A stretch of DNA of 64,000 nt. Source: Actinoplanes lobatus. GTDB taxonomy: Bacteria > Actinomycetota > Actinomycetes > Mycobacteriales > Micromonosporaceae. The number at the start of each line of letters is the position of its first letter. Position 1 is the first letter of the stretch. The position numbers and the translations under genes were made by a program. Below, one piece after another: positions 1,944-10,087 of this stretch. Where the stretch lies: assembly GCF_014205215.1 (NCBI RefSeq), contig NZ_JACHNC010000001.1, forward strand, positions 3,849,001 through 3,913,000. The letters run 5' to 3'. The notes under the pieces are model-generated. The model was not told the DNA's origin and did no database searches. It was given only the letters and a program-made list of their open reading frames with translations.

Positions 1944-2750
1944 TCAGTGACCGACAGCCTTGGCGCTGGCCTCCCACAATCGCGCGGCCAGGGCGCTGTC
2001 GCCGGCGTGCGCGGCCGGCCGGGTGACGGTGCGGCCCACGTAGTAGCCGCCGTCCACCAGCTCCGCCTCGGGCGTGGTGGCCAGCCAGACCAGCAGCTCA
2101 CCGGCCTTCTCCGGGGTGACCAGGAAGGGCGCGTAACGGTAGAAGAGCCGGGTGACCCGGCCGGTGCCGAAGTTGGTGCGCACCACACCCGGATGGAAGG
2201 ACACGCTGAACACCTCCGGCCAGCGGCGGGCCGCCTCGGCGGTGAACAGGATGTTGGCCGCCTTGCTCGCCCCGTAGGCCTGCCACGAGCTGTACCGCGC
2301 CGGATCGCCGGCCAGCCGCTCCGGATCGGGGCTGCCCTGCATGTGTGCCCGGGACGCGGTGTTCACCACCCGGCCGCCCTGCAACTGCTCCCGCAGCAGG
2401 CCGGTGAGCAGGAACGGCGCCAGGTGATTGCCCTGGATGGTGGCCTCGAGGCCGTCGCCGGTGCGGCGGAACTCCCCGACCATGCCGCCCGCATTGTTCG
2501 CCAGCACGTCGATCCGTGGACAGGCCGCGCGCAGCTGATCGGCCAGGGCGCGCACCTCGGCGAGGCTCTCGAAGTCGGCCCGGAAGGCGGCCGGCTCCCG
2601 CCCTCCTGCCGCCGTCACCCTCTCGACGGCGGTGGCCAGCCGGCCGGGATCGCGGCCGACCAGCACCACCTCGTCGCCGCGGGCGGCGAACTGCTCCGCT
2701 GCGGCCAGGCCCACGCCGGAACTCGCCCCGGTCACCACGATCGTCGCCAT
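1944..2750 (-). CDS. Short-chain dehydrogenase/reductase
   Basis: 268-residue SDR-family oxidoreductase. The NAD(P)-binding Rossmann motif TGASSGVG is at residues 7-14, the NNAG motif near residue 85, and the catalytic YxxxK appears as YGASK in the middle of the protein. GRDPGRL after strand 2 suggests NADP(H) preference. The C-terminal part resembles the retinol-dehydrogenase/protochlorophyllide-reductase-like branch common in actinobacteria, but the substrate is unknown. It is divergent from the DNA-damage operon; about 75 bp separate its ATG from the PafBC-like promoter. Confidence 0.88.
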   Translation of the reverse strand: MATIVVTGASSGVGLAAAEQFAARGDEVVLVGRDPGRLATAVERVTAAGGREPAAFRADFESLAEVRALADQLRAACPRIDVLANNAGGMVGEFRRTGDGLEATIQGNHLAPFLLTGLLREQLQGGRVVNTASRAHMQGSPDPERLAGDPARYSSWQAYGASKAANILFTAEAARRWPEVFSVSFHPGVVRTNFGTGRVTRLFYRYAPFLVTPEKAGELLVWLATTPEAELVDGGYYVGRTVTRPAAHAGDSALAARLWEASAKAVGH

Positions 2751-2826
2751 GCCGCCATGGTAGTCACGAAGCCGTCGATCATCCGTTCGAAAAAGCCGGT
2801 GGCACGGCGCCGTGAAGGTTGCCTTT

Positions 2827-2849
2827 TTGTCGGAGGGGGGTGTTAGTCT
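2827..2849 (+). promoter_or_regulatory. PafBC-dependent (RecA-NDp type) DNA-damage promoter
   Basis: The sequence TTGTCGGAG, 8 nt, TAGTCT matches the actinobacterial LexA-independent damage promoter consensus TTGTCRGTG-N8-TAnnnT at every defined position except one (A for T in the eighth base). In mycobacteria this element is recognised by RNA polymerase with the activator PafBC. The -10 is TAGTCT at 2844-2849, which puts the start site near 2856, just before the LexA boxes. It points toward the HEPN-imuA'-imuB-dnaE2 genes. Confidence 0.75.
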
Positions 2850-2860
2850 CTGCGGTAGTT

Positions 2861-2886
2861 AGAACGGATGTTCGAAAGGGTGTTCG
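2861..2886 (+). promoter_or_regulatory. Two overlapping LexA (SOS) boxes
   Basis: Box 1 (2861-2874) is AGAACGGATGTTCG and box 2 (2873-2886) is CGAAAGGGTGTTCG. Each differs at one position from the Gram-positive/actinobacterial SOS consensus CGAACRNRYGTTYG. They share two bases, so their centres are 12 bp apart, about one helical turn, and two LexA dimers could bind side by side. Placed just downstream of the predicted start site, LexA would block transcription of the mutagenesis operon until RecA* triggers its cleavage. Confidence 0.8.
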
Positions 2887-3235
2887 TTCTGCTCCGGGAT
2901 CGTGTTTCGCGGCACGTGTCCCGGGTGCGGTGGCCCGCGAAGCGCCGCACACCCTGGTCCGGGCATTCGCGGGTCCGGGCCTCAAGGCAGGCCGTCGCTC
3001 GCCACCCCCGACCCCCGGTGGTGGGCGACGGACCCGCCGGCGGTGCCGGCCGGGTGTGGTGTGGGGAAGCTTCACACCCGGCCGGCTTGCCGCCGGGCGG
3101 CCCGGACGGGCCGCCCGCCGGGGCTCCGGCTGCCCATTTCGGAGCCCCGGTTCCCGGCACGGCATGCTGCGTCTTCCTCCGCAGCGATCGGTTCGACCCA
3201 CACGTCGGATGCGGAACAGGCGAGGAGATACGACG
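2887..3235 (+). other. Structured 5' leader of the mutagenesis operon, no convincing gene
   Basis: About 350 nt lie between the LexA boxes and the first gene. Open frames cross it but none has recognisable protein features or a good ribosome site. Instead it holds three strong hairpins: 2993-3030 (14 bp with two G-U pairs), 3095-3116 (9 perfect bp, 4-nt loop) and 3118-3150 (11 perfect bp, 11-nt loop). The last two are back to back and no T-run follows. The stretch could be a regulatory leader or the body of a short damage-induced RNA; this is inference. Confidence 0.5.
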
Positions 3236-3733
3236 ATGGCGAGCACCACGGCCCCCGGCCTCACGGCGGCTCCCGGTCCGGCGAGCGCCGGCGCGGCCCC
3301 CCGGGCGGATTCGCCCACGGTCCCGGCTCACATGCTGCCGCACCGCACACCGTCCCAGCTGCTGGCGCTCGCCCGGACGGGCTTGATCGAGGCAGCGCAC
3401 ACCACCCCTGACGGGCTGCGCTACGCGGCGGCGCATCTGGCCGCCCTGCGCGCGGCCGCCGCCCTGCTCGCTGCCCGGGCCCGGCCGGCCGCGCCCGGCC
3501 GCCGCAGCCGGGCGACCAGCGTCTGGTCCCTGCTGGTGCTGGTGGCGCCCGAGTTCAGCGACTGGGCCGGCTATTTCGCGCTCGGCGCCGGCAAGCGCGC
3601 GGCGGCCGAGGCCGGCATCCCCCATGTCGTGAGCGCCCGCGAAGCCGACGACCTGCTGCGCGCCGCCGAGCAGTTCGTCACCGTGGCGGAGTCCGCGCTC
3701 GGGTTGACATACCAGCCACCCTTGGCCGCGTGA
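3236..3733 (+). CDS. SAV_6107-family HEPN-domain protein
   Basis: 165 residues from ATG 3236, preceded by GAGGAG at 3222-3227. After a Pro/Ala-rich N-terminus (1-36) the protein is all-helical, with TPSQLLALARTGLIEAA, then RYAAAHLAALRAAAALLAARARP, RSRATSVWSLLVLVAPEFSDWAGYF and SAREADDLLRAAEQFV, the order seen in the actinobacterial SAV_6107 HEPN family. R62-YAAA-H67 has the RX4H form of HEPN ribonuclease active sites, but whether it is catalytic here is not known. It is the first gene behind the PafBC promoter and LexA boxes, so it should be induced by DNA damage with imuA', imuB and dnaE2. Its stop codon lies inside the first unit of a 45-bp tandem repeat. Confidence 0.8.
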   Translation: MASTTAPGLTAAPGPASAGAAPRADSPTVPAHMLPHRTPSQLLALARTGLIEAAHTTPDGLRYAAAHLAALRAAAALLAARARPAAPGRRSRATSVWSLLVLVAPEFSDWAGYFALGAGKRAAAEAGIPHVVSAREADDLLRAAEQFVTVAESALGLTYQPPLAA

Positions 3734-3858
3734 CCGCCCGCTCGCCGTCGTGGGCCGGCGGTCCGCCGGGCCGCGTGATCGTCGGCTCGCCGTTGCGGAC
3801 CGGCCGTCCCTTCGGCCGCGTGACCGTCGGCTCGCCGTTGCGGACCGGCCGTTCTCTC
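3724..3858 (+). repeat. Three tandem copies of a 45-bp repeat
   Basis: Units start at 3724, 3769 and 3814, each beginning GGCCGCGTGA; a fourth start (GGCCGCG) is seen at 3859. Copies 2 and 3 agree at 41 of 45 positions; copy 1 is more diverged. Copy 1 contains the last codons and the TGA stop of the HEPN gene, so the array seems to have grown out of the gene's 3' end. 45 is a multiple of three, but each unit keeps the in-frame TGA, so the repeats do not extend the protein. Confidence 0.85.
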
Positions 3859-4177
3859 GGCCGCGCGCCGGCCGCCCGACCCGGGTAGCCCGGCTCAGCG
3901 GCAGTCCCGGCCAGTGCGGCTCAGCCGCGCCGGGCGCGTTCCGCGAGGGGCGTCAACGGTTGTTTCGCACCGGCACAGGCCCCGGTAGATCGGGTCCCGC
4001 CTACCGGGCGCTCTGGGCTTCGGCGGCCTGGCTCCCCGCGGCCTCGGGCTTGGGCGGCCCGGTTCTCCGCGGCACGGGCTTCGGCGGCACGGGCTTCGGC
4101 CGGCGCGATCTCGGTGGGCGGGGCTCGGCGGGCGGTTGAGCGCCGGCGGTGGCCGGGTGGGCAGTGATGTGACGGGG
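3859..4177 (+). other. Low-complexity spacer between HEPN gene and imuA'
   Basis: About 320 bp with no convincing gene. It contains a perfect 15-bp direct duplication (4071-4085 and 4086-4100, GGCACGGGCTTCGGC) and several looser GGGCTTCGG / GGCTTGGGC variants from about 4013, a second tract of slippage-type repeats. No terminator is evident, so the operon transcript probably reads through into imuA'. Confidence 0.6.
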
Positions 4178-5023
4178 ATGTGCGACAGAGCGGGGCATGA
4201 CGTGGCAGGGCGCATGATCAATGGTGCGGCCGCCCTCGCGGGGCTGGTCCGGACGGCGACCGGGACCGGCGAACCGGGGGTGCACCGGCTGCTGCCGGTG
4301 GCGCCCGAGCTGAGCGGGCTGTTGCCGGGGCGTGGGCTACGGCGGGGCAGCACGGTGGCCGTCGCCGCCGGGCAGAGCGTGTCGGCCGGTGGCCGGACCT
4401 CGCTGATGCTGGCGTTGCTCGCGGCCGCCTCGCGGAACGGCTCCTGGTGCGCGGTGGTCGGAGTGCCCGCGCTGGGTGCGCTCGCCGCCGCGGAGAGCGG
4501 CATCGTGCTGGAGCGGCTCGCACTGGTGCCCGACCCGGGGCCGGACTGGCCCACCGTGGTGGCCGCGCTGATCGACGGCGTGGACGTGGTGGTCGCGGCG
4601 GTTCCCGGGCCGGTGCCGGCGTCCGTCACCAGCCGGCTGGCCGCGCGGGCCCGGCAGCGGGGAAGCGTGCTGGTGCCGTTCGGTGACTGGTCCGGCGCCG
4701 ACGTGACCCTCGAAGTCGGCACGGGCCGGTGGGAGGGTCTCGGATCCGGCCGGGGCCGGCTGCGCCGCCGGGAGGTCACCGTCGTGTCCCGCGGGCGGGG
4801 TGCGGCCACCCGGCCCCGGGAGATCACCATGTGGATGCCGGGTGTCACGGTCCGGGACAGCATCCCGCCGCCCCCGCCGTCCACGCTTCCCGAACGGCCC
4901 CCGGGCCCTCCGCCCGAGCGGGCCGCACCGCCGGAGGCGGCCGCGCCGCGTCTGCTGCGCCGTTCCGGATCCCCGGCGGGGGCAGCCCGGCCGGACCTGA
5001 CGTGTGCGCAGGTGAGGAGCTGA
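4178..5023 (+). CDS. imuA': ImuA'-like RecA-fold accessory protein with degenerate P-loop
   Basis: 281 residues from ATG 4178 (ATG 4214 and an upstream TTG at 4136 are alternatives). GRGLRRGSTVAVAAGQSVSAGGRTSLMLALLAAAS aligns with the RecA Walker A region, but GQSVSAGGRTS has lost the GxxxxGKT/S lysine. GVPALGALAAAESGIVLERLALVPDP matches the following RecA strand and loop. The C-terminus is Pro/Ala/Arg-rich and probably disordered. In mycobacteria ImuA' and ImuB bring DnaE2 to the beta clamp for translesion synthesis. It overlaps imuB by 1 nt (TGATG). A family assignment from gene order plus this RecA-like core is likely but not certain. Confidence 0.75.
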   Translation: MCDRAGHDVAGRMINGAAALAGLVRTATGTGEPGVHRLLPVAPELSGLLPGRGLRRGSTVAVAAGQSVSAGGRTSLMLALLAAASRNGSWCAVVGVPALGALAAAESGIVLERLALVPDPGPDWPTVVAALIDGVDVVVAAVPGPVPASVTSRLAARARQRGSVLVPFGDWSGADVTLEVGTGRWEGLGSGRGRLRRREVTVVSRGRGAATRPREITMWMPGVTVRDSIPPPPPSTLPERPPGPPPERAAPPEAAAPRLLRRSGSPAGAARPDLTCAQVRS

Positions 5024-6798
5024 TGGAGGCGGCTGTTCGTACCCTGCTGGTCTGGTGTCCGGACTGGCCGGTGGTGGCCGCGGAGATCGTGGCGGGGGCG
5101 CCGGTGGCCGAGCCGGTCGCGGTGATGTCCGGGAACCGGGTGCTGGCCTGTTCCGAGGCGGCCCGGCGGGAAGGTGTGCGGCGAGGGCTCCGGCGGCGGG
5201 AGGCGCAGGGACGCTGCCCGCAACTGGTGGTCGTGGAGCACGATCCGGGGCGGGACGCGCGGGCGTTCGAGCCGGTGGTGGTCGCGATCGAAGGTGTGGT
5301 GGCCGGGGTCGAGGTGATCCGGCCGGGGGCCTGTGCGGTCGCCGCCCGAGGGCCGGCCCGCTACTTCGGCGGGGAGGAGGCGGCCGCTGAGCGGATCGTC
5401 GAGCAGGTCGCCCTGGAGTGCGCGGTGGAGTCCCAGATCGGGCTCGCCGACGGGGTGTTCGCGGCCGGGATCGCGGCACGGACGGGACGGATCGTCGAGG
5501 CGGGAGGCAGCCGGGAGTTTCTGTCCGGCGTACCGGTCGAGGCTCTTGAGGAGCCGGAGCTGACCGACCTGCTGAAGCGGCTCGGGGTCAAGACGCTCGG
5601 TGATTTCGCGGCGCTGCCGGCGGGGGATGTGCTGACCCGGTTCGGATTCTCCGGGGCACTGGCGCACCGGCTCGCCTCCGGGGGCGATCATCGGCCGCTC
5701 GCGGTGCGGCGGCCACCGGCCGATCTGACCGTGGAGGAGACCTACGACGAGCCGCTCGCCCGGGTGGACGTGGCGGCCTTCGCGGGGCGGGTGCTGGCCG
5801 AACGCCTGCACGACAGGCTGGCCGCGCACGGGCTGGCGTGCACCCGGCTCGGTGTGGAGGCGGTCACCGCGGACGGCCAGGAGCTGTTCCGGGTGTGGCG
5901 GCACGACGGTCTGCTCGGTGCCGCCGCCATCGCCGAGCGGGTGCGATGGCAGTTGGACGGCTGGCTCACCGGCGCCCGGCGGGGAAGGACGGCACAGCCC
6001 ACCGCGGGACTGGTGCGGTTGCGGCTGGTGCCCGACGGGGTGCTGGCTCACGTCGGCCTGCAACCGGGGCTCTGGGGTGAGACCGGAGCGGAACGGGACC
6101 GTGCGCACCGGGCGTTCAGCCGGGTCCAGGGTCTGCTCGGCCCGGAAGCGGTGGTCACGCCGGTGCTGAGCGGCGGCCGGTCGGCGGACGACCGGGTGCG
6201 GCTGGTGCCCTGGGGCGACGAACGGGAACCGGAACGGCCGGTCGCCGTCCAGGCCGAGCCGATCCCCGGCATCGAGACGGTCCCGGTTCTGGAGAGGGCG
6301 GTGGCTCCGCCGTTGCGGCTGGCCGCCCCGCGGGCCTCCCATCTGAGATTGGTGGGCGGGCTCCGGACGGAGCCTGCCAACGGGGTCGAGACCTCCGGCG
6401 CGGACGGGTTCGCCATGGTCGAGGTGAGGGCCGGGCGGCCCCGGCGCGCCGGGCGGAAACCGGCCGCCCTGCCGCCGTGGCCCGGGCGGCTGCCGCAGCC
6501 TTCGCCGGCCGTGGTGCTGGAGCATCCGCTGCCGGCCGTGGTCGCCGACGCGGAGGGCCGGGCGGTCGGGGTCAGCGCACGGCTCGAGCTGACCGGGGCT
6601 CCCGCGACGTTGACGGTGGGCCGGCGGGAGCCGGTGGCGATCACCGGCTGGGCCGGGCCGTGGCCGGTGGACGAGCGCTGGTGGGCGGCGGGGGAGTCGC
6701 GGCGGCGGGCCCGGTTCCAGATGGCGCTCGCGGACGGGCGCGCGCTGCTGCTGACTCTCGCGGGCGGCCACTGGATGGTCGAGGCCGTCTATGACTGA
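5023..6798 (+). CDS. imuB: ImuB, catalytically inactive Y-family polymerase homologue
   Basis: 591 residues from ATG 5023, behind GAGGAG at 5014-5019. The N-terminus LLVWCPDWPVVAAEI replaces the Y-family motif I, which normally carries an acidic residue before the steric gate, and the SxDE motif III is replaced by VIRPGACAVAARGPARYFGG, so the polymerase active site is gone. The helix-hairpin-helix region (LLKRLGVKTLGDFAALP) and little-finger region remain, with a long C-terminal extension ending in WPVDERWW and RARFQMALADGRALLLTL. In known systems ImuB is the hub that binds the beta clamp, ImuA' and DnaE2. It overlaps dnaE2 by 8 nt. Confidence 0.92.
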   Translation: MEAAVRTLLVWCPDWPVVAAEIVAGAPVAEPVAVMSGNRVLACSEAARREGVRRGLRRREAQGRCPQLVVVEHDPGRDARAFEPVVVAIEGVVAGVEVIRPGACAVAARGPARYFGGEEAAAERIVEQVALECAVESQIGLADGVFAAGIAARTGRIVEAGGSREFLSGVPVEALEEPELTDLLKRLGVKTLGDFAALPAGDVLTRFGFSGALAHRLASGGDHRPLAVRRPPADLTVEETYDEPLARVDVAAFAGRVLAERLHDRLAAHGLACTRLGVEAVTADGQELFRVWRHDGLLGAAAIAERVRWQLDGWLTGARRGRTAQPTAGLVRLRLVPDGVLAHVGLQPGLWGETGAERDRAHRAFSRVQGLLGPEAVVTPVLSGGRSADDRVRLVPWGDEREPERPVAVQAEPIPGIETVPVLERAVAPPLRLAAPRASHLRLVGGLRTEPANGVETSGADGFAMVEVRAGRPRRAGRKPAALPPWPGRLPQPSPAVVLEHPLPAVVADAEGRAVGVSARLELTGAPATLTVGRREPVAITGWAGPWPVDERWWAAGESRRRARFQMALADGRALLLTLAGGHWMVEAVYD

Positions 6799-9700
6799 GC
6801 GGGAGCTGTGGGCGATTCCCTCGCAGCGGGTGGTGGATCCGCTGATCGTGGACGGGGACGGTGGTGACTCGCCGGCCTGGAGCCGGAAGCGGGAACCGTA
6901 CCGGCCCACGCCGGGTCTGGTCCGCGCCGAGAGCACGACTCCGTACGCGGAACTGCACTGTCACACCAACTTCAGCTTCCTGGACGGCGCCAGTCACCCG
7001 GAGGAACTGGCCGAGGAGGCGGCGCGGCTCGGGCTGACCGGGCTGGCGGTCACCGATCACGACGGCTTCTACGGTGTGGTCCGCTTCTCGCAGGCGGCCC
7101 GCGAACTGCACCTGCCCACGATCTTCGGAGCCGAGTTGTCGCTGGGCCTGACCAGGCCGCAGAACGGCGAGGCGGACCCGGAGGGCACGCACCTGCCGGC
7201 TCTCGCGCACGGCCACGAGGGGTATGCCCGGCTGGCCCGGGTGATCTCCGAGGCGCAGCTGCGCGGCGGGGAGAAGGGCCGCCCCGACTACGGCGACCTG
7301 GAGCGGGTCGCCGAGACCCTGCGGGATCACGTGCTGGTGCTGACCGGCTGCCGGAAGGGGGCGGTGCCGCTGGCGCTGGCCACCGGGGGGATGGAGCGGG
7401 CGGCGTACGAGCTGGACCGTCTGGTGGCCCTGTTCGGCGCGCCGAATGTGGCCGTGGAGCTGACCGACCACGGCGACCCGATCGACGGCGACCGCAACGA
7501 CGCCCTGTTCGAGCTGGCCCGCAGTCGTCGCCTGGAGGTGGTGGCGACGAACAACGTGCACTACGCGACCCCGTCCCGCCGCCGGCTGGCGACCGCCCTG
7601 GCCGCGGTCCGGGCCCGGCGCAGCATGGACGAGATGGACGGCTGGCTGCCCGCGGCCGGCACCGCCCACCTGCGCAGCGGCGCCGAGATGGCCCGCCGGT
7701 TCGCCGGCTATCCGGGCGCGGTGGAGAACGCCGCGGTCTACGGCGGTGACCTGGCGTTCGACCTGGACCTGGTGGCTCCCCGGCTGCCGGACCACCCGGT
7801 GCCGCCCGGTCACACCGAGATGAGCTGGCTGCGGAAACTGGCGATGGACGGCGCCCGGCAACGGTACGGGGACGACGAGAAGGCCCATCAGCAGATCGAG
7901 TACGAGCTCCGCATGATCGAGGAACTCGGCTTCCCCGGCTACTTCCTGGTCGTCTACGACATCGTCCGGTTCTGCCGGGAGAACCGGATCTACTGCCAGG
8001 GCCGGGGTTCGGCGGCCAACTCGGCGGTCTGCTACGCGCTCTGGATCACGAATGTCGACGCGGTGAAGTACAACCTGCTCTTCGAACGGTTCCTCGCCCC
8101 GGAGCGGGACGGCCCACCGGACATCGACGTCGACATCGAGTCGGACCGGCGGGAGGAGGTGATCCAGCACGTCTACGGGAAGTACGGCCGGGAGCACACC
8201 GCCCAGGTGGCGAACGTGATCTCCTACCGGCCCCGGTCGGCGGTCCGGGACATGGCCCGTGCGTTCGGCTTCTCCCCGGGCCAGCAGGACGCCTGGAGCA
8301 AGCAGATCGACCGTTGGGGCGACGTGGCCGCCACCGGCACCGACATGCCGGAGGCGGTGCGCGACTTCGCCAACGAGGTGCAGACGTTCCCCCGCCACCT
8401 GGGCATCCATTCGGGCGGCATGGTGATCTGCGACCGGCCGATCATCGAGGTCTGCCCGGTCGAGTGGGGCCGTATGCCGGGCCGCACCGTCCTGCAGTGG
8501 GACAAGGACGACTGCGCCGCCGTCGATCTGGTCAAGTTCGACCTGCTCGGGCTCGGGATGCTGTCGGCGCTGCACTACGCGTACGACATGATCTCCGACG
8601 AGCTGGACATCGGGACGATGCCGCTGGACGACCCCGAGGTCTACGAGATGCTCTGCCGGGCCGACTCGGTCGGGGTGTTCCAGGTGGAGAGCCGCGCCCA
8701 GATGGCCACGCTGCCCCGCCTCAAGCCACGGGAGTTCTACGACCTGGTCATCGAGGTGGCGCTGATCCGCCCCGGGCCCATCCAGGGTGGTTCCGTCCAC
8801 CCGTACATCCGCCGGAAGAACGGCCTGGAGGCGCCCCGCGTGCCGCACCACCTGATGGAGAACGCGCTGGCCAAGACCCTCGGCGTGCCGCTCTTCCAGG
8901 AGCAGTTGATGCAGTTGGCGATCGACGTCGCCGGCTTCGACCCGTCGGAGGCCGATCAGCTGCGGCGGGCGATGGGCTCGAAACGGTCGGTGGAGAAGAT
9001 GGAGAGGATCAAAAAGCGACTGTACGACGGGATGGCCGCCAACGAGATCACCGGACAGCTGGCCGACGACCTGTTCGTGAAGCTCTCCGCGTTCGCCAGT
9101 TACGGCTTCCCGGAGAGCCATGCCATGAGCTTCGCCTACCTGGTCTACGCGAGCGCCTGGCTGAAGCGGTACCACCCGGCGGCGTTCTGCGCGGCCCTGC
9201 TCAACGCGCAGCCGATGGGCTTCTACTCGCCACAGACGCTGGTCGACGACGCACGCCGGCACGGGGTCGAGGTGCGCCGGCCGGACATCAACCGCAGCGA
9301 TGCCGCGGCGACGCTGGAGACCACGCCGGAGAGCCGGTGGAGATCCGCGGCCGGGGAGCCACCGCACGCCTGGGGGATCGGCGGCCCGGCCGTCCGTCAG
9401 GGCCTTTCCAGCATTCGTACGATCGGTGCCGACCTCGCCGAGCGGATTGAGCAGGAACGCCGTACCCATGGTCCTTATCGGTCAATGACGGATCTCGCCC
9501 GGCGTACCGGATGCTCCACCGCACACCTGGAGGCGCTCGCCACCGCCGACGCGTTCGCGGGTTTCGGGCTTTCGCGCCGTGAGGCGCTGTGGGCCGCGGG
9601 CGCGGCCTCGCAGGACAAGCCGGACCGTCTTCCGGGCACGGTGACCGGCACCGAGGCGCCCGTGCTGCCCGGCATGAGCGACGTGGACATCCTGGTCGCG

Positions 9701-10087
9701 GACGTGTGGGCGACCGGCCTGTCACCGGAGACGCATCCGGCCCGTTTCCTGCGCGAGGAGCTGGACCGGGCCGGAGCGCTGCCGATCGAACGGCTCGCTG
9801 CGGTGGAGGCGGGCACCCGGATCCGGGTCGGCGGGATCGTCACCCACCGGCAGCGGCCGGCCACCGCGGGCGGGGTGACCTTCGTGAACCTGGAGGACGA
9901 GACCGGGATGCTGAACGTGACCTGCTCACCGGGTCTGTGGCAGCGCTACCGGAAGGTGGCCCGGATGAGCTCGGCGCTGTTGGTGCGCGGCCGGCTGGAG
10001 AAGGCGGAGGGGGTGCTCAACCTGGTGGCGGACCGGCTCGACGCGATCAGCCCACCGGTGACACCGGCGTCCCGCGATTTCCGATGA
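6791..10087 (+). CDS. dnaE2: Error-prone DNA polymerase III alpha subunit DnaE2
   Basis: 1098 residues. The PHP domain opens with AELHCHTNFSFLDGASHPEEL and VTDHDGFYGVVRF. The C-family polymerase active site includes PDIDVDIESDRR (motif PDIDVD at residues 443-448), and the C-terminus carries an OB-fold segment (IRVGGIVTHRQRPATAGGVTFVNLEDETG). Length and the WCQGRGSAANS-like block (YCQGRGSAANSAVCYALWIT) are those of DnaE2 rather than the longer DnaE1, which is encoded separately at 53563. It carries out mutagenic translesion synthesis with ImuA'/ImuB. It is the last gene of the damage-inducible operon. Confidence 0.97.
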   Translation: MTERELWAIPSQRVVDPLIVDGDGGDSPAWSRKREPYRPTPGLVRAESTTPYAELHCHTNFSFLDGASHPEELAEEAARLGLTGLAVTDHDGFYGVVRFSQAARELHLPTIFGAELSLGLTRPQNGEADPEGTHLPALAHGHEGYARLARVISEAQLRGGEKGRPDYGDLERVAETLRDHVLVLTGCRKGAVPLALATGGMERAAYELDRLVALFGAPNVAVELTDHGDPIDGDRNDALFELARSRRLEVVATNNVHYATPSRRRLATALAAVRARRSMDEMDGWLPAAGTAHLRSGAEMARRFAGYPGAVENAAVYGGDLAFDLDLVAPRLPDHPVPPGHTEMSWLRKLAMDGARQRYGDDEKAHQQIEYELRMIEELGFPGYFLVVYDIVRFCRENRIYCQGRGSAANSAVCYALWITNVDAVKYNLLFERFLAPERDGPPDIDVDIESDRREEVIQHVYGKYGREHTAQVANVISYRPRSAVRDMARAFGFSPGQQDAWSKQIDRWGDVAATGTDMPEAVRDFANEVQTFPRHLGIHSGGMVICDRPIIEVCPVEWGRMPGRTVLQWDKDDCAAVDLVKFDLLGLGMLSALHYAYDMISDELDIGTMPLDDPEVYEMLCRADSVGVFQVESRAQMATLPRLKPREFYDLVIEVALIRPGPIQGGSVHPYIRRKNGLEAPRVPHHLMENALAKTLGVPLFQEQLMQLAIDVAGFDPSEADQLRRAMGSKRSVEKMERIKKRLYDGMAANEITGQLADDLFVKLSAFASYGFPESHAMSFAYLVYASAWLKRYHPAAFCAALLNAQPMGFYSPQTLVDDARRHGVEVRRPDINRSDAAATLETTPESRWRSAAGEPPHAWGIGGPAVRQGLSSIRTIGADLAERIEQERRTHGPYRSMTDLARRTGCSTAHLEALATADAFAGFGLSRREALWAAGAASQDKPDRLPGTVTGTEAPVLPGMSDVDILVADVWATGLSPETHPARFLREELDRAGALPIERLAAVEAGTRIRVGGIVTHRQRPATAGGVTFVNLEDETGMLNVTCSPGLWQRYRKVARMSSALLVRGRLEKAEGVLNLVADRLDAISPPVTPASRDFR

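What the first reader, a model, noticed from the sequence alone, without database searches (positions are those of the whole stretch)
2827..2886. Dual DNA-damage control: a PafBC-type promoter abutting two overlapping LexA boxes ahead of a HEPN-imuA'-imuB-dnaE2 operon
TTGTCGGAG-N8-TAGTCT matches the LexA-independent PafBC promoter consensus at all but one defined position, and 12 bp after its -10 element two SOS boxes (one mismatch each) overlap by two bases. This builds an AND gate: PafBC activates, LexA must also leave. The side-by-side LexA sites, one helical turn apart, suggest cooperative and very tight repression of mutagenesis.
Basis: partly seen in the sequence, partly recalled or inferred. 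Interest (0 to 1): 0.8.

Follow-up and report, generated by a model that had tools for sequence, protein, structure and literature searches.

The report
Double-locked mutagenesis promoter with RNA leader
A soil bacterium's switch for its error-prone DNA-copying genes carries binding signatures of two DNA-damage systems at a fixed spacing, and is followed by a folded RNA leader, not found in the RNA-family library searched, that may be a further layer of control.

Summary
2827-2849 has one mismatch to the published RecA-independent/PafBC promoter consensus; a LexA box follows at 2860-2875. PafB, PafC and LexA genes are present. The composite keeps a 30-34 bp register in Micromonosporaceae (74 of 90 regions read; 77 of 80 named loci by a looser cut), a strict form occurs once per genome in 28 of 61 family genomes, and a related form sits at imuA' in 27 of 30 loci of another genus, probably Mycobacterium. 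The overlapping second LexA box is poorly kept (4 of the 8 same-genus loci of its type). Dual SOS/PafBC control of the mycobacterial mutasome is published, so the promoter is a new member of a known kind. Less expected is what follows it: a structured leader RNA (core 2988-3093, hairpin 3166-3185) with strong covariation (32 of 37 pairs changed on both sides), matched in other actinobacterial families, without a match in Rfam 15, and genome-wide found at this operon in 9 of 10 hits. AND logic, LexA cooperation and the RNA's function are inferred; published mycobacterial data partly speak against a strict AND gate.

The parts
2775..2790 (+).
   Evidence: 1 mismatch of 12; an upstream box 73-85 bp before box 1 in 8 of 15 same-genus loci although the neighbouring gene differs
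2824..2828 (+). T run before the PafBC element
   Evidence: TTTTT here; common in aligned relatives and in the other three exact motif sites of the genome
2827..2835 (+). PafBC-type -26 element TTGTCGGAG
   Evidence: 1 mismatch to published consensus
2844..2849 (+). -10 element TAGTCT; transcription start inferred near 2856
   Evidence: TANNNT eight bases after the -26 element; start not mapped
2860..2875 (+). LexA box 1
   Evidence: 1 mismatch of 12; kept 30-34 bp after the PafBC start in 74 of 90 family regions
2872..2887 (+). LexA box 2, overlapping box 1, weak
   Evidence: 2 mismatches of 12; a +12 box in 4 of 15 same-genus loci and 7 of 77 named loci
2888..3235 (+). Rest of the 5' leader up to the HEPN start codon, several hairpins
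   Evidence: 2857-3240 folds with z = -6.06, 0 of 100 shuffles as stable
2992..3031 (+). Leader hairpin D, loop with CGACCCCC
   Evidence: within R1 match 2988-3093, 85.1 bits, E 2.4e-13; helix 1: 15 of 15 pairs changed on both sides
3045..3086 (+). Leader hairpin E, loop with GTGGGGAAGC
   Evidence: within the same match; helix 2: 11 of 14 pairs changed on both sides
3166..3185 (+). Leader hairpin F, loop TCTTCCTC, complementary to the E loop
   Evidence: found separately at 3165-3185 with E only 0.18; helix 4: 6 of 6 pairs changed on both sides
3236..3733 (+). HEPN (SAV_6107-type) gene
   Evidence: PF18726, 114.1 bits
4214..5023 (+). imuA'
   Evidence: NF058630, 177.4 bits
5023..6798 (+). 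imuB
   Evidence: PF00817 and context; no NCBIfam hit over cut-off
6791..10087 (+). dnaE2 (error-prone polymerase)
   Evidence: NF004225, 1490.5 bits

Best explanation
This is a DNA-damage promoter with two transcriptional gates, followed by a structured leader RNA. Gate 1 (inferred): the promoter has a -10 but no recognisable -35, so sigma-A polymerase needs ssDNA-activated PafBC at the -26 element. Gate 2 (inferred): LexA on box 1, about +5 to +20 from the inferred start, blocks initiation until it is cleaved; in this clade an upstream LexA site may strengthen repression. Together they act mostly as an AND gate on HEPN-imuA'-imuB-dnaE2, with possible leak when only one pathway is active. The transcript begins with a conserved multi-hairpin leader (shown by covariation). 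With less confidence I infer that the leader adjusts translation or elongation into the operon: the pyrimidine loop of hairpin F can pair with the E loop or with the ribosome-binding region of the first gene.
For: Motif and register; PafB/PafC match the solved mycobacterial complex; LexA genes; 4 of the 9 scanned proteins behind the other motif sites are repair or replication proteins: SMC/RecN-like, uracil-DNA glycosylase, SSB, NAD-dependent ligase; recA has TTGTCATAC-N8-TACCGT; related composite at imuA' in 27 of 30 loci of another genus against 0-3 of 30 at control offsets. RNA: z = -6.06, 32 of 37 pairs changed on both sides and covariation 0.357 against at most 0.093 slid, 9 of 10 genome-wide hits at this operon. 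PafBC mechanism from passages of PMC11804915.
Against: No expression, binding or start-site data. 5 of the 9 scanned proteins behind motif sites are not known repair proteins (3 without Pfam match, an HSP90-like ATPase, a transporter). In mycobacteria the two pathways are reported as partly redundant, a 'fail-safe' (PMC10421592 passage), dnaE2 in biofilm as mostly RecA-driven (PMC12702967 passage) and still induced with both tuned down (PMC8151990 passage). The own -10 has TG one base upstream, which could allow PafBC-independent starts. The E-F loop contact does not covary.
Confidence: 0.6

Rival explanations
1. LexA alone controls an ordinary sigma-A promoter with an extended -10; the TTGTC element only boosts it or is incidental.
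For: TGTTAGTCT is an extended -10 here; mycobacterial dnaE2 was reported mainly RecA-dependent; some families keep the LexA box without a good PafBC element (27 of 40 class regions above 3 mismatches, 2 of them without a LexA box).
Against: TTGTC and its 23-base register to the -10 persist while the spacer changes; the motif is rare in the genome; in many relatives the TG is not in extended -10 position.
Confidence: 0.2
2. OR-type control: either pathway alone gives useful induction, as a fail-safe.
For: Reported partial redundancy for UV and mitomycin C in mycobacteria (passage).
Against: One -10 serves both elements, and LexA covers the start region in this geometry; the same passage also says mutagenesis is co-dependent on both.
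Confidence: 0.25
3. The upstream LexA box serves the divergent SDR gene and not this operon.
For: In the window the SDR gene (1944-2750, minus strand) starts 25 bp from the box.
Against: The box stays when other genes, also codirectional ones, lie there; SDR homologues in named relatives with the box start about 0.5 to 5.7 kb away.
Confidence: 0.15
4. The leader hairpins are only stability or termination structures without a specific switch.
For: Very stable G+C-rich stems.
Against: Loops are near invariant while stems vary, which mere stability does not need; no U-tailed terminator found.
Confidence: 0.35

Closest known systems
Mycobacterial imuA'-imuB/dnaE2 mutasome under SOS and PafBC (Adefisayo et al. 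2021, not held; described in passages of PMC10421592)
   Same: Same genes, same two pathways; the related composite is visible upstream of imuA' in 27 of 30 loci that I take to be Mycobacterium
   Different: Here one promoter precedes HEPN-imuA'-imuB-dnaE2 together, with a LexA box further up and a long structured leader; the mycobacterial leaders printed are short
recA of mycobacteria with PafBC promoter P1 and LexA-controlled P2 (passages)
   Same: PafBC-type promoter and LexA control at one gene
   Different: There two promoters; here one promoter with the LexA box over its start region
Streptomyces venezuelae dnaE2 with two LexA sites bound in vitro (passages of PMC9380542)
   Same: LexA sites ahead of dnaE2
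   Different: Those authors' initial search did not find the M. smegmatis PafBC motif conserved in S. venezuelae; no leader RNA in the passages seen
Cis-acting leader RNAs in Rfam 15
   Same: Conserved structured RNA in the 5' leader of one kind of operon
   Different: No Rfam family matched the leader

Membership tests
PafBC (RecA-NDp) promoter | TTGTCRGTG-8nt-TANNNT | tested here: met
   11 of 12 defined positions
PafBC (RecA-NDp) promoter | PafB and PafC encoded by the genome | tested here: met
   Adjacent genes match 7p5x/9fnd chains, E 1e-70 and 7e-76
PafBC (RecA-NDp) promoter | No sigma-A -35 element | tested here: met
   0 sigma-70-type matches in 2700-4300 (0.0 expected, so weak)
PafBC (RecA-NDp) promoter | PafBC-dependent induction by DNA damage | not testable with these tools
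   Needs experiment
PafBC (RecA-NDp) promoter | Motif lost where pafB is lost | tested here: inconclusive
   241 of 246 class genomes have a pafB match, too few losses
LexA (SOS) promoter | LexA box at the promoter and lexA in the genome | tested here: met
   Boxes; three LexA-type genes over cut-off
LexA (SOS) promoter | LexA binding and RecA-dependent induction | not testable with these tools
   Needs experiment
Structured cis-regulatory RNA | Covarying helices | tested here: met
   32 of 37 pairs with changes on both sides; 0 of 500 shuffles reach it (alignment fitted to the model). On the unfitted alignment A2 12 of 50 pairs
Structured cis-regulatory RNA | Member of a described Rfam family | tested here: not met
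   No leader match
Structured cis-regulatory RNA | Changes expression of the downstream gene | not testable with these tools
   Needs experiment

The most novel reading that the evidence does not exclude
The actinobacterial mutasome operon begins with an undescribed family of regulatory leader RNA (full core in seven sampled families, hairpin E in an eighth) that forms a third, RNA-level gate: a loop-loop contact (GGGGAAG with CUUCCYC) competes with pairing to the ribosome-binding site and sets how much error-prone polymerase is made after PafBC and LexA have allowed transcription. LexA dimers on both sides of the promoter, at near-integral helical spacing, close a repression loop around it.
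Probability: 0.35. Interest if true: 0.8.

Novelty: new variant of a known kind. Interest (0 to 1): 0.6.

Why it matters
Stress-induced mutagenesis drives adaptation. The work shows that a PafBC-plus-LexA arrangement at the mutagenesis operon extends well beyond mycobacteria, with a fixed geometry that single mutations can test, and it adds a candidate RNA layer, with a structure ready for probing, in front of the error-prone polymerase genes.

Tried and rejected
Divergent SDR gene as owner of the upstream LexA box: thought unlikely, since the box stays while the neighbouring gene changes.

Leader as coding sequence: openness of frames was uninformative in this G+C-rich DNA (58, 46 and 51 of 77 leaders open in the three frames). 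The spacing from the D loop to the E loop is not kept to multiples of three (45, 33 and 12 of 90 regions), which speaks against coding.

A first motif scan read minus-strand loci in the wrong orientation and seemed to show loci without the composite; one search corrected this (29 of 30 with at most 3 mismatches; L017 has 4).

Linking loss of the PafBC motif to loss of pafB: pafB is nearly universal. Covariation of the E-F loop contact: none, both loops are near invariant.

Helical phasing of LexA boxes: 7 distinct genus-distance values (62-85 bp, three genera) give R = 0.89 at 10.5 bp per turn; too few lineages to conclude. With 2 mismatches allowed, class loci also show 24, 40 and 65 bp, which fit less well.

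Literature: seven answered paper searches listed no paper that from title or abstract start describes a structured RNA before dnaE2, imuB or this HEPN gene; I saw listings only, except for passages of PMC8151990, PMC9380542, PMC11804915, PMC10421592, PMC12702967, PMC3710099, PMC5656591, PMC2864571, PMC6789036 and PMC8223512. In PMC2864571 none of dnaE, imuB, error-prone, translesion, Micromonospora or LexA occurs. A 2017 survey of 224 RNA candidates (name recalled) is not held, so a description outside Rfam is not excluded.

Full report
WHAT IS THERE. The window is part of a 10.4-Mb genome. Its HEPN protein is 98% identical to one of Actinoplanes flavus, so I take it as an Actinoplanes. The consensus tTGTCRgtg-8nt-TannnT was read in a passage of PMC5656591. 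A further LexA box lies at 2775-2790. Downstream are a SAV_6107-type HEPN gene, imuA', imuB and dnaE2, codirectional, with about 480 bp after HEPN. Among 80 named relatives 77 have imuA' in the same direction after HEPN; in L202 (imuB found), L220 and L278 it was not found.

MORE THAN CHANCE. TTTTGTCRGWG-N8-TANNNT occurs 11 times in the genome with at most one mismatch, four times exactly, against one for the reversed control; a shorter form gave 6 against 3. I scanned the proteins behind 9 of the 10 other sites and one further site. Four of the nine are an AAA/SMC-type protein that I read as RecN (L157), a uracil-DNA glycosylase (L158), SSB (L160) and a NAD-dependent DNA ligase (L162). Three had no Pfam match (L154, L156, L159), one is an HSP90-like ATPase (L161) and one a transporter (L164). 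The site (L009) precedes a DAK2 protein, which I recall as a common neighbour of recG (not tested). recA carries TTGTCATAC-N8-TACCGT, with weaker LexA-like boxes upstream. PafB and PafC are adjacent and match the M. smegmatis proteins of solved complexes. Three LexA-type genes are present.

CONSERVATION. HEPN was found in 145 of 150 family genomes (147 match rows) and in 170 of 246 class genomes. I read 90 upstream regions of the family rows (the 30 best and 60 chosen by hand) and 40 class regions chosen by hand to cover families. With at most 2 mismatches in each motif, the distance from PafBC start to LexA start is 33 bp in 45 and 32 bp in 18 of 108 pairs within 150 bp; the reversed motif gives 4 pairs in all. 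A PafBC motif with at most 3 mismatches sits 30-34 bp before a LexA box in 74 of 90 family regions (0 or 1 of 90 at six control offsets) and in 13 of 40 class regions (0 to 2 of 40). So 16 of 90 and 27 of 40 lack it by this cut. Of 80 named loci 77 carry it with at most 4 mismatches; L207, L220 and L278 do not (no control was run for this cut). A joint pattern without mismatch occurs in 28 of 61 family genomes, once in each, never in reverse; by coordinates 27 of 28 are at HEPN. In 30 imuA' loci (of 40 genomes searched) of another genus, which I take to be Mycobacterium, 27 show the element 29-36 bp before a LexA box, against 0-3 of 30 at four control offsets; there the -10 is mostly TTTACT and a TTGAC lies further up.

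THE LEXA BOXES. Box 1 is the conserved one. In the 15 same-genus loci two arrangements exclude each other: 8 have an upstream box (85 bp in six, 84 in one, 73 in one; one of the boxes with 2 mismatches) and 7 have a box 21 bp downstream of box 1; the overlapping +12 box is in 4 of the first 8. Among 77 named loci the +12 box appears in 7. The upstream box stays although the neighbouring gene changes. Over 94 composite loci, LexA boxes with at most 1 mismatch number 12 at 55-95 bp upstream and 1 at 96-400 bp. Distances lie near whole helical turns, but few lineages are involved.

THE LEADER RNA. Window 2857-3240 folds far better than shuffled sequence (z = -6.06, 0 of 100). Thirty-five named leaders, chosen by hand, align with near-invariant loops (TTCGCGGC; CGACCCCC; GTGTGGGGAAGC; CTTCCTC) on variable stems; RNAalifold finds 12 of 50 pairs with double changes. 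A model from 36 Micromonosporaceae cores (R1) scores window 2988-3093 at 85.1 bits, E 2.4e-13, with ten weaker window matches of E 0.02-0.88. Over the 40 class regions with filters off it gives 8 matches with E below 0.001 (L118, L134, L121, L131, L153, L122, L126 for hairpin E only, L119), all on the sense strand downstream of a LexA box, and 21 weaker ones (E 0.008-0.92) that include antisense echoes. In one search, 64 of 69 family sources and 4 of 8 class sources given had a sense match at E of at most 0.001, besides 13 antisense matches (recounted); L105, L108, L109, L112 and L113 had none. On 62 sense matches (A6, from 67 sources, cut at 6e-5), 32 of 37 pairs change on both sides, 96.7% of cells pair, covariation is 0.357 against at most 0.093 with slid partners, and no shuffle of 500 reaches it; that alignment was fitted to the model. 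Genome-wide, R2 matches 10 of 246 class genomes at E of at most 0.01, once each, under stricter filters; 9 of 10 lie within 1 kb upstream of HEPN, G188 does not. The full form is thus a minority trait of the class, but largely operon-specific. A hairpin with a GACC[CT] loop and at least 11 stem pairs follows the LexA box in 13 of 40 class regions (no shuffle control). In several of these families the first gene is not HEPN but encodes another protein, which I recall as DUF6504 (not tested). A downstream hairpin loop complementary to GGGGAAG was found in 74 of 91 leaders, against 24 of 91 upstream stretches and 17.2 expected from shuffles; the contact does not covary. No Rfam 15 family matches the leader: two human-miRNA-type hits below gathering score, one TPP riboswitch elsewhere in L242, none in eight loci at E up to 1.

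HOW IT MOST LIKELY WORKS. Shown: motifs, geometry, conservation, regulator genes, RNA covariation. Inferred: PafBC recruits sigma-A polymerase at a promoter without a -35 element (mechanism in passages of PMC11804915); LexA blocks the start until cleaved; the leader tunes expression. F can pair with the E loop (-12.6 kcal/mol) or with the Shine-Dalgarno region (-10.5), so a switch is possible but unproven. Against a strict AND gate stand reports of partial redundancy in mycobacteria, of mostly RecA-driven dnaE2 and of dnaE2 induction with both pathways tuned down.

KNOWN OR NEW. Dual SOS and PafBC control of the mycobacterial mutasome is published (described in PMC10421592), and a review states that several genes carry both motifs and that the promoter type extends to other Actinobacteria (PMC8223512). 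The promoter is therefore a new member of a known kind. The leader RNA and the flanking LexA box are what I could not find described; the searches and their limits are under Tried and rejected.

Noticed in passing
G000:C1:833165-833785, 4656582-4657181, 7586097-7586699 (L195, L196, L197): Three LexA-type genes over the family cut-off in one genome; which of them binds these boxes is unknown.
   Followed up: no
L157, L158, L161, L162 and recA in L198: Several PafBC-type promoters end 6-8 bases before the likely start codon, so their transcripts may be leaderless, unlike the mutasome operon.
   Followed up: no
L128, L137, L138, L139 (one family, f18): Upstream of HEPN there is TTGTCAGTG (CTGTCAGTG in L138) without a LexA box of at most 1 mismatch nearby; HEPN may be PafBC-controlled but not SOS-controlled there.
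   Followed up: no
window 3724-3865: A 45-bp tandem repeat (3.2 copies) fills part of the gap between HEPN and imuA'.
   Followed up: no
L117, L118, L131, L134: In other families a short gene (M-T/S-RR... protein, recalled as DUF6504) follows the leader before HEPN.
   Followed up: partly
window 3236-3733: A HEPN gene heads the mutasome operon; a survey table lists this HEPN family (SAV_6107) with 'No' in the column on the conserved motif (passage of PMC3710099). A role in mutagenesis is untested.
   Followed up: no
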